Assembly (NCBI GenBank): GCA_949291545.1 | Contig: CASEWB010000007.1 | Location: forward strand, 179,271-243,270 | Source: an uncultured bacterium | Lineage (GTDB): Bacteria; Elusimicrobiota; Elusimicrobia; Elusimicrobiales; Elusimicrobiaceae | DNA length: 64,000 bases | Reading direction: 5' to 3' | Part shown: positions 7,554 to 60,745 of the stretch, in pieces | Position numbering within the stretch: position 1 is the stretch's first letter | How the letters are laid out: each line of letters begins with the position of its first letter | Translations under genes and position numbers: made by a program | The notes under the pieces: model-generated | Seen by the model: only the letters and a program-made list of their open reading frames with translations | Told to the model about the DNA's origin: nothing | Databases searched by the model: none

Positions 7554-8009
7554 ATGAAACAAGGTTTTACCTTAATTGAACTATTGGTTGTGGTATTAAT
7601 TATTGGGATATTATCGGCAGTGGCATTGCCCCAGTACGAAACGGCGGTGGAAAAGAGCCGTGCCTCGGAAGCCTTTATGAACGGCAAAACTATTTTAGAC
7701 GCTATGAACCGCGCCTTGACGGAACGCCCCAATGAAGCGCCCAATTCCCGTGCGTCGTTGGACGTGCGCCCCAATGGCGGGACTTGGAACAGTGCGGGCA
7801 CCCAATTTACGACGGAATGGTTTATGTATGATTTGTCCAAAGGGGACAGATTGGAAGTAACCCGGGATTTTGGTTCCGGTGATAAATATGTGCTGACCTT
7901 TTACAATAATTTAAGTTCGTCCCCGGATGCTAAAACCTGCACCGGAAGCGGTACCAAAGGGGCTAAGCTGTGCAAGTTGTTTTTGGCTTCCGGCTTTTCT
8001 TCTAACTAA
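7554..8009 (+). CDS. Type IV pilin-like protein (pilin 1)
   Basis: A 151-residue prepilin. The four-residue leader MKQG is followed by FTLIELLVVVLIIGILSAVA, the class III signal cut by prepilin peptidase PilD, with the conserved Glu at position 5 of the mature protein. The rest is a globular head with two cysteines near the C-terminus (KTCTGSG and KLCKLF) that could close a D-region loop. A strong AGGAGG site precedes the ATG. The gene is monocistronic and no assembly ATPase, platform or secretin gene is nearby, so it could be a major or minor pilin or a type II secretion pseudopilin. Two more pilins occur at 11979 and 26824. Confidence 0.88.
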   Translation: MKQGFTLIELLVVVLIIGILSAVALPQYETAVEKSRASEAFMNGKTILDAMNRALTERPNEAPNSRASLDVRPNGGTWNSAGTQFTTEWFMYDLSKGDRLEVTRDFGSGDKYVLTFYNNLSSSPDAKTCTGSGTKGAKLCKLFLASGFSSN

Positions 8010-11847: not shown

Positions 11848-11875
11848 GTTGTGTTGAAAAAGGACAATAGAGGGG

Positions 11876-11902
11876 TTGACTCGTTTTTTTTTTTGATAAA
11901 TT
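11876..11902 (+). promoter_or_regulatory. Pilin 2 promoter with T11 tract in the spacer
   Basis: TTGACT, CG, eleven T, then GATAAATTTT. The same layout, with thirteen T, stands before pilin 3 (26789). Taking TAAATT as -10, the spacer is 15 bp here and 17 bp there. Homopolymer length in the -35/-10 spacer is a known basis for phase-variable expression in other bacteria. Confidence 0.6.
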
Positions 11903-11978
11903 TTCCTTAGTCTTTTTGGAAGGGGGAAAGTCTAAAAAACGCTTGAATCCCTTCTAATAGCTAATTTTAGGAGGATTT

Positions 11979-12524
11979 ATGAAGCCAGGCTTTACATTGA
12001 TGGAATTATTGGTTGTGATATTAATTATCGGAATTTTGGCCGCCATTGCGGTGCCGCAATATAGTAAGGCTATTGAAAAATCCCGCGCGGTGGAAGCCAT
12101 CAATTGGTTAAATACGGCGCTTAAAGCGGAACAGGTGTATCATGAAGCGAACGATGTTTATGCTACACACTTAGATCAGTTGGATATTGAAATGCCCGGG
12201 ATCCCGTGGAATCCGGCCAATGGAAATAATACCACCCGGGGAAAGAAATTTTTATTTACGATTCAGGCCCTGCCGGCTGCCCAATATAAAACGCTGTTGT
12301 TAACGGCCCAGCGCGGTACATCGGCGGATAATCCCTTATTTACCGTGGGTTCAGGCAAGTATACACAATATACGCTTAGTATTTCTGTAGACGAAAACGG
12401 CACCGTCCGCCGCTGGTGCCAAACTGCCAAGCCGACGGCTCCTTTAACGGCGGATATTACGTCCGGCGCTTCGGAAATTTGCCGTGCGTTGGCCAACGGG
12501 CACCCGGGCGGTATGATGCAGTAG
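11979..12524 (+). CDS. Type IV pilin-like protein (pilin 2)
   Basis: A 181-residue prepilin with leader MKPG followed by FTLMELLVVILIIGILAAIA, the Glu5 motif and hydrophobic helix required for pilus assembly. The amphipathic continuation is VPQYSKAIEKSRAVEA, then a beta-rich head with two C-terminal cysteines (RRWCQTAKP and ASEICRALA) likely forming a disulfide loop. AGGAGG precedes the ATG. It is monocistronic, with a poly-T promoter upstream and a strong terminator downstream. Role as major pilin, minor pilin or adhesin cannot be told from sequence. Confidence 0.88.
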   Translation: MKPGFTLMELLVVILIIGILAAIAVPQYSKAIEKSRAVEAINWLNTALKAEQVYHEANDVYATHLDQLDIEMPGIPWNPANGNNTTRGKKFLFTIQALPAAQYKTLLLTAQRGTSADNPLFTVGSGKYTQYTLSISVDENGTVRRWCQTAKPTAPLTADITSGASEICRALANGHPGGMMQ

Positions 12525-12553
12525 TTTTTGTGTAACGGTTTAGCAGACGATAC

Positions 12554-12586
12554 AAAAATCCCCGAAAATAAACTTTCGGGGATTTT
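12554..12586. terminator. Intrinsic terminator, bidirectional, after pilin 2
   Basis: Perfect stem AAAAATCCCCGAAA / TTTCGGGGATTTTT with a 5-nt loop between convergent genes. Confidence 0.92.
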
Positions 12587-12601
12587 TGATGGCGGAATAA
12601 A

Positions 12602-26788: not shown

Positions 26789-26843
26789 TTGACCCGTTTT
26801 TTTTTTTTTGATAAATTTTGACTATGATGAAAATTTATCAAAA
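26789..26843 (+). promoter_or_regulatory. Pilin 3 promoter with T13 spacer and overlapping inverted repeat
   Basis: TTGACC, CG, thirteen T, GATAAATTTT: the pilin 2 promoter plan with two more T, giving a 17-bp spacer to TAAATT. A perfect 14-bp inverted repeat, TTTTGATAAATTTT (26806-26819) and AAAATTTATCAAAA (26830-26843), covers the -10 and the ATG at 26824. It could be an operator or an mRNA 5' hairpin. Confidence 0.6.
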
Positions 26844-27336
26844 TTCCCCTACGATGAGCAAAAACGCCGGATTTACGTTAATAGAGCTGTTAGTGGCGGT
26901 TTTAATTATTGGTATCTTGGCGGCCATTGCGCTGCCTCAATATCAGGTGGCGGTTGCCAAAAGCCGCACGGCGGAGGCCGTAGCTGTCTTGACAACTATT
27001 ACGGAGGCGCAGGAAGTTTATTATATGGCTAACGGGCAGTATACAGATAATTTAGACGATTTAGATATTGATGTAAAGCCCATTTCAAAAGCGTGGGTAT
27101 TTGCCTGTAGCTTCAACCGAACCTGTTATGCTACTGCGCGTGAAGCGAATCTTCCGTCTTCCATAGAATTCCATTTGCTGAATGTGCCGCCTTCCATGCC
27201 GGCTTCTTACAGCGGCAAGCATTGGTGCCGGGTTTTGCCTGGGAATGATATGGGAACCCAAATTTGCAAAACATATGGGGCGCACGATCCAACTGTTAGC
27301 GCGGTTTCAGGCGCACAGTATTACTTGATGAACTGA
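26824..27336 (+). CDS. Type IV pilin-like protein (pilin 3)
   Basis: A prepilin of about 170 residues. The pilin signal is NAGFTLIELLVAVLIIGILA with Glu5, then AAIALPQYQVAVAKSRTAEA and a globular head with cysteines (FACSFNRTCYATA) and a C-terminal pair (KHWCRVLPG, GTQICKTYG). Two starts are possible: the ATG at 26824, six bases after the -10 (leaderless, leader peptide of 16 residues), or the ATG at 26854 with leader MSKNAG. Neither has a Shine-Dalgarno site; I give 26824 because of its position relative to the promoter. No pilus assembly genes are nearby. Confidence 0.85.
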   Translation: MMKIYQNSPTMSKNAGFTLIELLVAVLIIGILAAIALPQYQVAVAKSRTAEAVAVLTTITEAQEVYYMANGQYTDNLDDLDIDVKPISKAWVFACSFNRTCYATAREANLPSSIEFHLLNVPPSMPASYSGKHWCRVLPGNDMGTQICKTYGAHDPTVSAVSGAQYYLMN

Positions 27337-59483: not shown

Positions 59484-60710
59484 TTATTTCTCCTCCGGCA
59501 TTCCCTGTGCTGCGGCAAAGCCCGAAGCCCAGGCAAAATGCAAATTAAATCCGCCGCTTTTGCCGTCTACATCCAACAATTCCCCCGTCAGATACAGGCC
59601 CGGACATTTAAGCGACTCAAATGTATTATAGTTTATTTCTTGCGTATTTACACCCCCTGTTGCCGCCATGGCTTCGTTCCACGGGCGCACGCCGGTGGCC
59701 GTAAGCGGCCAGGCGCAAGGCGTTTGCACCAGTCTTTGGCGCGTGTTGGGGGTTTGGTCTTGCATAGGAATATTTTTGCGCAAACCAATAAAATCAATCA
59801 GCAAATTGGATACGCTTTCGTGCAGAATGCCGGCTAAAAAGTCCTTCGGCCGGCGGGTAGCGTAGGCCTTTAAGCGTTGTTCCAAAAACGCTTGGGGGTT
59901 TGGTAATTGCGGGAAAAAATTCATTGTCAAAGCCACATTCCCCTTAGTCAAAGCGCGCGATACGGCGGAACTAATGTTTAAAGCCGCCGGCCCGTTTAAG
60001 CCGTAATGGGTAAATAAGACTTCTCCTTCGGCTTGGTCTAGCCGTGTGTCGTTTTGGCGGGCTTCCAAGCGCACTTGGCAGCGTACACCCGTAAGGCGCG
60101 CCAGGGAAGTTTCTTTAATGCAAAGGGCGCTTAAGGCCGGGTGCGGCGTGATAAGCGTATGCCCAAGCGCGCGGGCCAGCTCGTAACCGCTTTGTGTGCC
60201 GCCAATTTGCGGGTAGGCGCACGAGCCGCAGGCCAATACCAGTTTTTTGGCTTGAAAGGAGCGCCCGTCGGCGGTAGTTACGGTGAAAGTTTTGCCGCGT
60301 TTGACGCGCACGGCCGGGCAGGAACAGAGCAGTTCCGCGCCGGCTTCGGCCACGGCCAATTTCAGCGGCTCGGCCACGGCGGTAGACTTGCCGGTGGAGG
60401 GAAACACCCGCCCCAGTTCTTCTTCGGTGGTTAGCACACCCAACCGGGAAAAATAATCCAAGCAGTGGCGAAAAGAAAATTTATCCAAAGTTTTGGCAAT
60501 CAGTTCTGCCGGTGCATGATAATAGGCCGGCGCCACATAAGCATTTGTCAAGTTGCAGCGGCCATTGCCGCTTGCCAAAATTTTGCGTGCAGGCTGGGGT
60601 TCCTTTTCCAAGACCAATGTTTTGCGTCTGGCGCGCGCACATTCCAGCGCGCATACCAGCCCGCTGGCTCCGGCACCAATGATAATTACGTCGTAAAGAG
60701 GGGAAGTCAT
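59484..60710 (-). CDS. HI0933/YhiN-family FAD-dependent oxidoreductase
   Basis: A 408-residue flavoprotein. The N-terminus YDVIIIGAGASGLVCALECA holds the GxGxxG dinucleotide motif, then LVLEKEPQPARKILASGNGR with CNLTNA, the hallmark of the HI0933 family. LVLACGSCAYPQIGGTQSGY and a C-terminal AATGGVNTQEINYNTFESL with GLYLTGELLDVDGKSGGFNL complete it. The reaction catalysed is not firmly known; a role in RNA modification or redox has been suggested for relatives. It begins seven bases after TACACT with no ribosome site. Confidence 0.9.
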   Translation of the reverse strand: MTSPLYDVIIIGAGASGLVCALECARARRKTLVLEKEPQPARKILASGNGRCNLTNAYVAPAYYHAPAELIAKTLDKFSFRHCLDYFSRLGVLTTEEELGRVFPSTGKSTAVAEPLKLAVAEAGAELLCSCPAVRVKRGKTFTVTTADGRSFQAKKLVLACGSCAYPQIGGTQSGYELARALGHTLITPHPALSALCIKETSLARLTGVRCQVRLEARQNDTRLDQAEGEVLFTHYGLNGPAALNISSAVSRALTKGNVALTMNFFPQLPNPQAFLEQRLKAYATRRPKDFLAGILHESVSNLLIDFIGLRKNIPMQDQTPNTRQRLVQTPCAWPLTATGVRPWNEAMAATGGVNTQEINYNTFESLKCPGLYLTGELLDVDGKSGGFNLHFAWASGFAAAQGMPEEK

Positions 60711-60745
60711 CGATTACAGTGTAGCAAAAAAAATCAGTTTTTGTC

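What the first reader, a model, noticed from the sequence alone, without database searches (positions are those of the whole stretch)
11876..11902. Two pilin genes share a promoter whose -35/-10 spacer is a poly-T tract of different length
Seen: TTGAC(T/C)CG, T11 or T13, GATAAATTTT stands before pilin 2 (11876) and pilin 3 (26789). The flanks are otherwise different, so the element is conserved as a unit. Taking TAAATT as -10, the spacer is 15 bp at one locus and 17 bp (the sigma-70 optimum) at the other. Known: slipped-strand changes in homopolymers inside promoter spacers switch fimbriae and outer-membrane proteins on and off in Bordetella, Haemophilus and Neisseria. Inference: pilus expression in this lineage is phase-variable.
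Basis: partly seen in the sequence, partly recalled or inferred. Interest (0 to 1): 0.75.

Follow-up and report, generated by a model that had tools for sequence, protein, structure and literature searches.

The report
Dozens of poly-T pilin promoter switches
In this bacterium 36 of the 37 long runs of T in the genome sit in the predicted promoters of separate pilin-like genes, and the run length differs between related species, so each run likely works as a slippage switch that tunes one pilus protein.

Summary
TTGACYCG-T(n)-GATAAATTTT stands at 11876 (T11) and 26789 (T13). It occurs 15 times in the 1.55 Mb genome, each time before a type IV pilin-like gene. Of all 37 T runs of 10 or more there, 36 are predicted -35/-10 spacers of pilin-like genes. 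In other genomes of the genus the -35 and -10 letters change (TAAATT, TACATT, TACACT, TATAAT), but the T spacer stays and spacing peaks at 16 bp (151 of 226 sites). Run length differs between matched loci of related species; one pair has T13 against T12 with one substitution in 400 upstream bases. This is the signature of promoter-spacer phase variation (meningococcal porA, Mycoplasma hyorhinis vlp), here in Elusimicrobia-type bacteria and at dozens of pilin loci. In 142 of 227 pilin loci the ATG lies where transcription should start (predicted leaderless mRNA), in most of them within a dyad. Not shown: length variants within one population, transcription starts, any effect on expression.

The parts
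11876..11881 (+). -35-like hexamer TTGACT of pilin 2
   Evidence: sequence; same place in 15 genome copies
11884..11894 (+). T11 run inside the spacer (spacer 15 bp)
11897..11902 (+). -10-like hexamer TAAATT of pilin 2; predicted transcription start near 11909
   Evidence: sequence; the hexamer varies as TANANT at the same place in other pilin loci; start not mapped
11969..11974 (+). Shine-Dalgarno site AGGAGG of pilin 2 (leadered class)
   Evidence: sequence
11979..12524 (+). pilin 2, N-methylation type IV pilin-like protein, 181 aa
   Evidence: Pfam PF07963 E 9e-07
11853..12600 (+). unit (promoter, pilin 2, terminator-like hairpin) missing at the matching place of relative G012
   Evidence: flanks align to L384 with 15 bases between them; limits approximate
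26789..26794 (+). -35-like hexamer TTGACC of pilin 3
   Evidence: sequence
26797..26809 (+). T13 run inside the spacer (spacer 17 bp); T12 at the matching locus of relative G014
26812..26817 (+). -10-like hexamer TAAATT of pilin 3
   Evidence: sequence
26810..26839 (+). dyad around the start codon (arms 26810-26820 and 26829-26839)
   Evidence: sequence; pairing in register over 70 distinct sequences of this class
26824..27336 (+). pilin 3, type IV pilin-like protein, 170 aa; ATG at the predicted transcription start, no Shine-Dalgarno-like site (predicted leaderless mRNA)
   Evidence: Pfam PF07963 E 1.9e-09 and PF16732; ATG at 13-14 nt from the G of GNTANANT in 142 of 227 loci, 0 of 142 with a Shine-Dalgarno-like site, against 73 of 79 at other distances

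Best explanation
Each element is a predicted sigma-70-type promoter whose -35/-10 spacer is a pure run of T, and slipped-strand gain or loss of T likely changes the spacing and so switches or tunes the one pilin gene behind it. Because 36 pilin-like genes of this genome each carry a run of 10 or more T, cells of one clone would differ in which of many divergent pilins they make. Shown here: the fixed -35/T-run/-10 layout, its near-exclusive link to pilin-like genes in this genome, a length mode that gives a 16-bp spacer, and length differences between related species. Inferred: that the hexamers are the promoter, that spacing sets output, that lengths vary within a population, and that transcription starts at the ATG in the leaderless class.
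For: 36 of 37 T>=10 runs of the genome precede N-methylation ORFs in sense direction, where about 105 runs are expected by a first-order model from the window and only 1 lies elsewhere. The T run stays while -35 and -10 letters change between loci and species, one species having a perfect TATAAT (G063). Spacer mode 16 bp (151 of 226); where the -35 side is one base longer the run is mostly one shorter (T11 in 17 of 22 against T12 in 133 of 193). Of 75 relaxed-spacer matches in eight motif-bearing genomes, 70 have an unbroken T run after TTGACNNG. Lengths differ in 17 of 30 matched pairs and are T10, T12, T13, T15, T16 in five like promoters of G079. Pilins behind the runs are diverse, median 27% identity past residue 30 in 35 of them.
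Against: No length variation within one population and no expression data could be seen. The sharp mode at one spacing would also fit a static promoter. Run lengths come from draft assemblies. 13 of 30 matched pairs have the same length. The feature is not universal in the genus: 9 of 61 genomes lack T10-GNTANANT and 2 have no T>=10 run; over all 61 genomes only 1349 of 2382 T>=10 runs have that context, and most of the rest were not examined. The reversed control pattern is non-zero in 6 of 61 genomes, 174 in all. MutS is present, so no mutator background is evident.
Confidence: 0.72

Rival explanations
1. Static T-tract promoter: the run is kept for its stiffness or as a binding or bending element, length drift is tolerated noise, and expression is not switched by slippage.
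For: Sharp length mode (T12 in 133 of 193 loci of the common class); A/T tracts have special structure (recalled).
Against: The run is a pure homopolymer in 70 of 75 matches, about a third of loci sit off the 16-bp mode (75 of 226), and long runs are almost absent elsewhere in this genome.
Confidence: 0.16
2. Copying alone: recent duplication or gene conversion of pilin units spreads one promoter, and the T run has no role of its own.
For: Units are gained or lost whole; some neighbouring copies are alike (L340).
Against: The same layout recurs with different -35 and -10 letters and at proteins only 27% alike past residue 30; letters around the run diverge while the run stays pure.
Confidence: 0.07
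3. The dyad around the start codon, not the T run, is the main control: it is an operator for a shared repressor, or an RNA fold that silences read-through transcripts.
For: Dyad pairs 80% in register against at most 41% when slid and persists in 8 of 78 leadered loci against 0.13 expected.
Against: 53 of the 78 leadered T-run loci are in -10 classes with no dyad at all, so the T run does not depend on it; only pair 9-20 covaries clearly (0 of 2000 shuffles), 6-23 weakly (22 of 2000).
Confidence: 0.08
4. Assembly artefact: true lengths are uniform and the differences are homopolymer errors.
For: All lengths come from draft assemblies.
Against: Differences of 2 and 5 bases between matched loci (T8/T10, T10/T15) and T10 to T16 within one genome exceed what I would expect of such errors (judgement).
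Confidence: 0.03

Closest known systems
Neisseria meningitidis porA (PMC3639595, passages seen)
   Same: Homopolymer (11 G) between -35 and -10; shorter variants (9G, 10G) arise and change the level of a surface protein.
   Different: One locus, poly-G, outer membrane porin; here poly-T at dozens of pilin loci.
Mycoplasma hyorhinis vlp genes (PMC10502178, passage seen)
   Same: A family of surface protein genes, each with its own promoter-region homopolymer (poly-A) whose length changes go with ON/OFF transcription.
   Different: Seven vlp genes in one strain (PMC4198240, passage), lipoproteins; here 36 dispersed pilin-like genes, poly-T on the sense strand, many predicted leaderless.
Bordetella fim2/fim3 poly-C and Haemophilus hif TA-repeat promoters (recalled; hif seen only as a reference title)
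   Same: Repeat length in the promoter controls fimbriae.
   Different: Other repeat units, one or two loci, chaperone-usher fimbriae rather than type IV pilins.
IS10 and phage T4 fold-back of read-through mRNA (recalled)
   Same: A start region buried in a hairpin unless transcription starts inside it: a possible reading of the dyad.
   Different: Not tested here; different genes.

Membership tests
promoter-spacer homopolymer phase variation (porA/vlp kind) | homopolymer between -35 and -10 at near-optimal spacing | tested here: met
   spacer mode 16 bp in 151 of 226 sites; hexamers are predictions
promoter-spacer homopolymer phase variation (porA/vlp kind) | long tract rare elsewhere in the genome | tested here: met
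   1 of 37 T>=10 runs is not before an N-methylation ORF; G or C runs of nine: 0
promoter-spacer homopolymer phase variation (porA/vlp kind) | tract length differs between related genomes at the same locus | tested here: met
   17 of 30 chosen matched pairs, not all independent
promoter-spacer homopolymer phase variation (porA/vlp kind) | length variants within one clone or population | not testable with these tools
   one genome per species, no reads; viral contigs gave 0
promoter-spacer homopolymer phase variation (porA/vlp kind) | expression depends on tract length | not testable with these tools
   no expression data
type IV pilin-like proteins | N-terminal methylation motif followed by a hydrophobic helix | tested here: met
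   PF07963 above cut-off for both window proteins and for 67 of the 70 places found in the genome
leaderless mRNA | start codon at the transcription start, no Shine-Dalgarno | tested here: inconclusive
   142 of 227 loci fit by position and 0 of these 142 have a Shine-Dalgarno-like site; transcription starts not mapped

The most novel reading that the evidence does not exclude
One genus of Elusimicrobia-type bacteria runs a combinatorial pilus lottery. Dozens of divergent pilin genes each sit behind their own poly-T slippage promoter, in principle 2 to the 36th coat states in this genome. In the commonest class the mRNA starts at the ATG, inside a dyad that hides the start codon in any transcript read through from a neighbouring gene, so only the switchable promoter can express the pilin.
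Probability: 0.3. Interest if true: 0.87.

Novelty: new variant of a known kind. Interest (0 to 1): 0.74.

Why it matters
If true, it is a large set of simple-sequence promoter switches devoted to one protein family, in a little-studied phylum. It offers a reason why one 1.5 Mb genome carries about 70 N-methylation ORFs. It makes testable, with existing reads, whether this lineage varies its surface as better-known host-associated bacteria do, and how spacer length tunes promoters when the spacer is one T run. Four searches of the paper library that pair an Elusimicrobi- term with pilin, phase variation, type IV pili or homopolymer listed no title on such a system; one search listed 20 of 79 papers. 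The library holds open-licence papers only, and the Elusimicrobium minutum genome paper is not held, so a report elsewhere is not excluded.

Tried and rejected
Housekeeping promoter: rejected for this genome, since 36 of 37 T>=10 runs precede pilin-like genes. Of the 40 T8-GNTANANT places, two have no pilin signature behind them (C6:50736 and C7:239988); the second, T8, precedes a HI0933-like flavoprotein gene.

Protein constraint alone as cause of the dyad: rejected, because the right arm is kept in 8 of 78 leadered loci where it does not code. RNA fold versus operator stays open.

Within-species variation: viral contigs held no match, and the genome collections hold one genome per species. 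Mutator background: MutS found. Poly-G switches: no run of nine.

Rows dropped or odd. The 30 pairs are my choice from the 80: I left out T6/T7 rows (mostly the reverse arm of the dyad), within-genome pairs and weakly matched pairs. The 30 include a four-species set counted as six pairs and a three-locus set counted as three; L040/L138 picked a different site than; several pairs lack an alignable upstream flank. In one search, 22 of 249 sites had no pilin signature within 420 nt: five loci end within 125 nt, one holds a run of N, four (L051, L060, L132, L176) carry the usual start and leader letters but no pilin signature by my test, two (L064) precede another exported-type protein, and ten are unexplained or unrelated T runs. 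Two T8 spacers are doubtful assignments. In G011, 3 of 3 T runs fetched without the -10 context had no pilin signature behind them (L315-L317).

Full report
Observation. Both genes carry the Pfam N-methylation motif. The window lies at C7:179271-243270 of an unnamed 1.55 Mb genome, 92% complete. The strict motif occurs there 15 times, with 0 for the reversed pattern, and all 15 stand before pilin-like N-termini. In named records the motif is mostly in Elusimicrobi- titles: 64 of the 80 rows shown (a capped list of 110), 9 more titled only 'uncultured bacterium'. The 7 rows from other groups have only six or seven T, or an interrupted run.

The T run is the conserved thing. N-methylation matches number 70 in this genome, 67 above the curated cut-off. 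Every T run of 10 or more on both strands makes 37, and 36 lie 44 to 187 nt before an N-methylation block in sense direction. The one exception follows a GC-rich hairpin and looks like a terminator (L333). A first-order Markov model from the window expects about 105 such runs. There is no run of nine G or C. So this genome avoids long homopolymers almost everywhere except in pilin promoters.

Spacing. In 38 pilin loci of this genome with T8 or more the spacer is 16 bp in 18, 15 in 6, 17 in 6, 14 in 4, and other values in 4 (two of these doubtful). The 26 pilin-like N-termini without such a run gave nine promoter-like matches, with spacers of 17 bp (6), 16 (2) and 19 (1), against about 0.3 per length in shuffles. 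So an ordinary sigma-70-like layout is probably in use. Over 249 distinct sites with T8 or more, from the loci held, 227 have a pilin signature within 420 nt. Among 226 with a recognisable -35 the spacer is 16 bp in 151, 15 in 27, 17 in 20, 14 in 15 and other values in 13. Where the -35 side is one base longer, the run is mostly one base shorter: 17 of 22 are T11, against T12 in 133 of 193 of the common class. The longer class comes largely from G011 and G015, so these are not independent events. A 16-bp mode for T-tract DNA against 17 for mixed DNA may reflect the tighter twist of A/T tracts (inference from recalled DNA structure). Both window copies (15 and 17 bp) are one off the mode, so neither can be called ON from sequence.

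Genus-wide. T10 followed by GNTANANT occurs in 52 of 61 genomes of the genus. The reversed control is 0 in 55 of 61 genomes and 174 in total in the other six, 113 of them in G011; there and in G015 the -35 side TTGACAT-N-G before the run itself fits the reversed pattern, while G004, G031, G061 and G064 were not looked into. Over all 61 genomes 1349 of 2382 T>=10 runs have the context; in 17 of the 56 genomes with at least five such runs it is 80% or more (629 of 672). Of 30 sample loci, 27 have a pilin signature behind the run; two of the three misses end too early to tell. Other letters are in use elsewhere: G011 has TTGACATCG-T11-GCTACATT, with pilins behind all 16 such sites fetched, and G063 has TTGAATCG-T12-CTTATAAT, with 11 of 12 fetched runs before pilins. 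All three G029 runs fetched, of five, precede pilins. Two genomes have no T>=10 run at all, one of them 96% complete, so the system is not universal. The strict motif was absent from the 24 same-order genomes outside the genus; other letters were not sought there.

Length changes. In 30 matched pairs chosen, 17 differ in run length. The clearest is L036/L358, T13/T12, with one substitution and no indel in the 400 upstream bases (10 substitutions and 2 indels in the 600 downstream). The pilin 3 locus of the window is T13 here and T12 in relative G014, with 85% identity upstream and 96% over the gene. A four-species set (L047, L230, L347, L369) reads T12, T11, T10 and G+T11, with at most one indel in the 1000 flanking bases of any pair. 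Five like promoters of G079 with near-identical flanks have T10, T12, T13, T15 and T16. These are differences between species or paralogs. Variation inside one population was not testable.

Translation start and dyad. In 138 of 227 pilin loci the first in-frame ATG is 14 nt, and in 4 it is 13 nt, from the G of GNTANANT, which is where transcription should begin, about 7 nt after the -10. None of these 142 has a Shine-Dalgarno-like site, while 73 of 79 loci with a later ATG do; 6 loci had no in-frame ATG. This predicts leaderless mRNAs. A dyad GATAAATTTTG-N8-CAAAATTTATC is centred on the start codon: over 70 distinct sequences pairing is 80% in register and at most 41% when slid, and one pair covaries clearly. 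It persists in 8 of 78 leadered loci against 0.13 expected: 6 of 17 with TAAATT, 2 of 8 with TACAAT, 0 of 53 others. If transcription starts in the loop, the promoter's own mRNA lacks the left arm, whereas read-through RNA would fold over the ATG. That is the fold-back logic known from IS10 and some T4 genes (recalled), offered here only as a hypothesis.

Mobility of the unit. The pilin 2 stretch, about 11853-12600, is missing at the matching place of relative G012, where the two flanks lie 15 bases apart. So a single pilin gene with its own promoter and terminator-like hairpin was gained or lost as a unit. The proteins are diverse: median identity 27% beyond residue 30 over 595 pairs of 35 pilins.

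Verdict. Promoter-spacer phase variation is known from porA (PMC3639595, passages) and vlp (PMC10502178, passages). New here are the bacterial group, the poly-T unit, the number of loci, the confinement of long runs to one gene family, and the predicted leaderless dyad start. Phase variation remains the most likely but unproven function.

Noticed in passing
window 7554-8009: A third N-methylation ORF (pilin 1) has a Shine-Dalgarno site and no T-run promoter in the 150 bases before it.
   Followed up: partly
window 60718-60733, minus strand: T8-GCTACACT stands before a HI0933-like flavoprotein gene (59484-60710, minus), not a pilin; its in-frame ATG also lies close to the predicted transcription start.
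   Followed up: partly
L004, L076, L111, L121, L155, L158; probably also L051, L060, L132, L176: The usual leader letters are present, but no in-frame ATG or no pilin signature is found. By eye several differ from intact relatives at short A or G runs, so a second, translational slippage site or plain decay is possible.
   Followed up: no
L339 (G034:C4:9000-12200): Two poly-T promoters with the same near flanks but T12 and T10 precede two exported-type proteins (350 and 340 aa) whose first halves are the same and whose ends differ: the switch layout may extend beyond pilins.
   Followed up: partly
many loci, e.g. L003, L009, L010: A short GC-rich inverted repeat (such as GGCC-tggaa-GGCC) often ends right before TTGAC; role unknown.
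   Followed up: no
L316 (G011:C9:16000-17700): A -35 plus T11 runs directly into letters that look like the inside of a pilin gene, without -10 or start, as if a deletion had joined them.
   Followed up: no
L333 (G000:C6:443677-443686): The only T>=10 run of the genome not before a pilin follows a GC-rich hairpin, like a terminator.
   Followed up: partly
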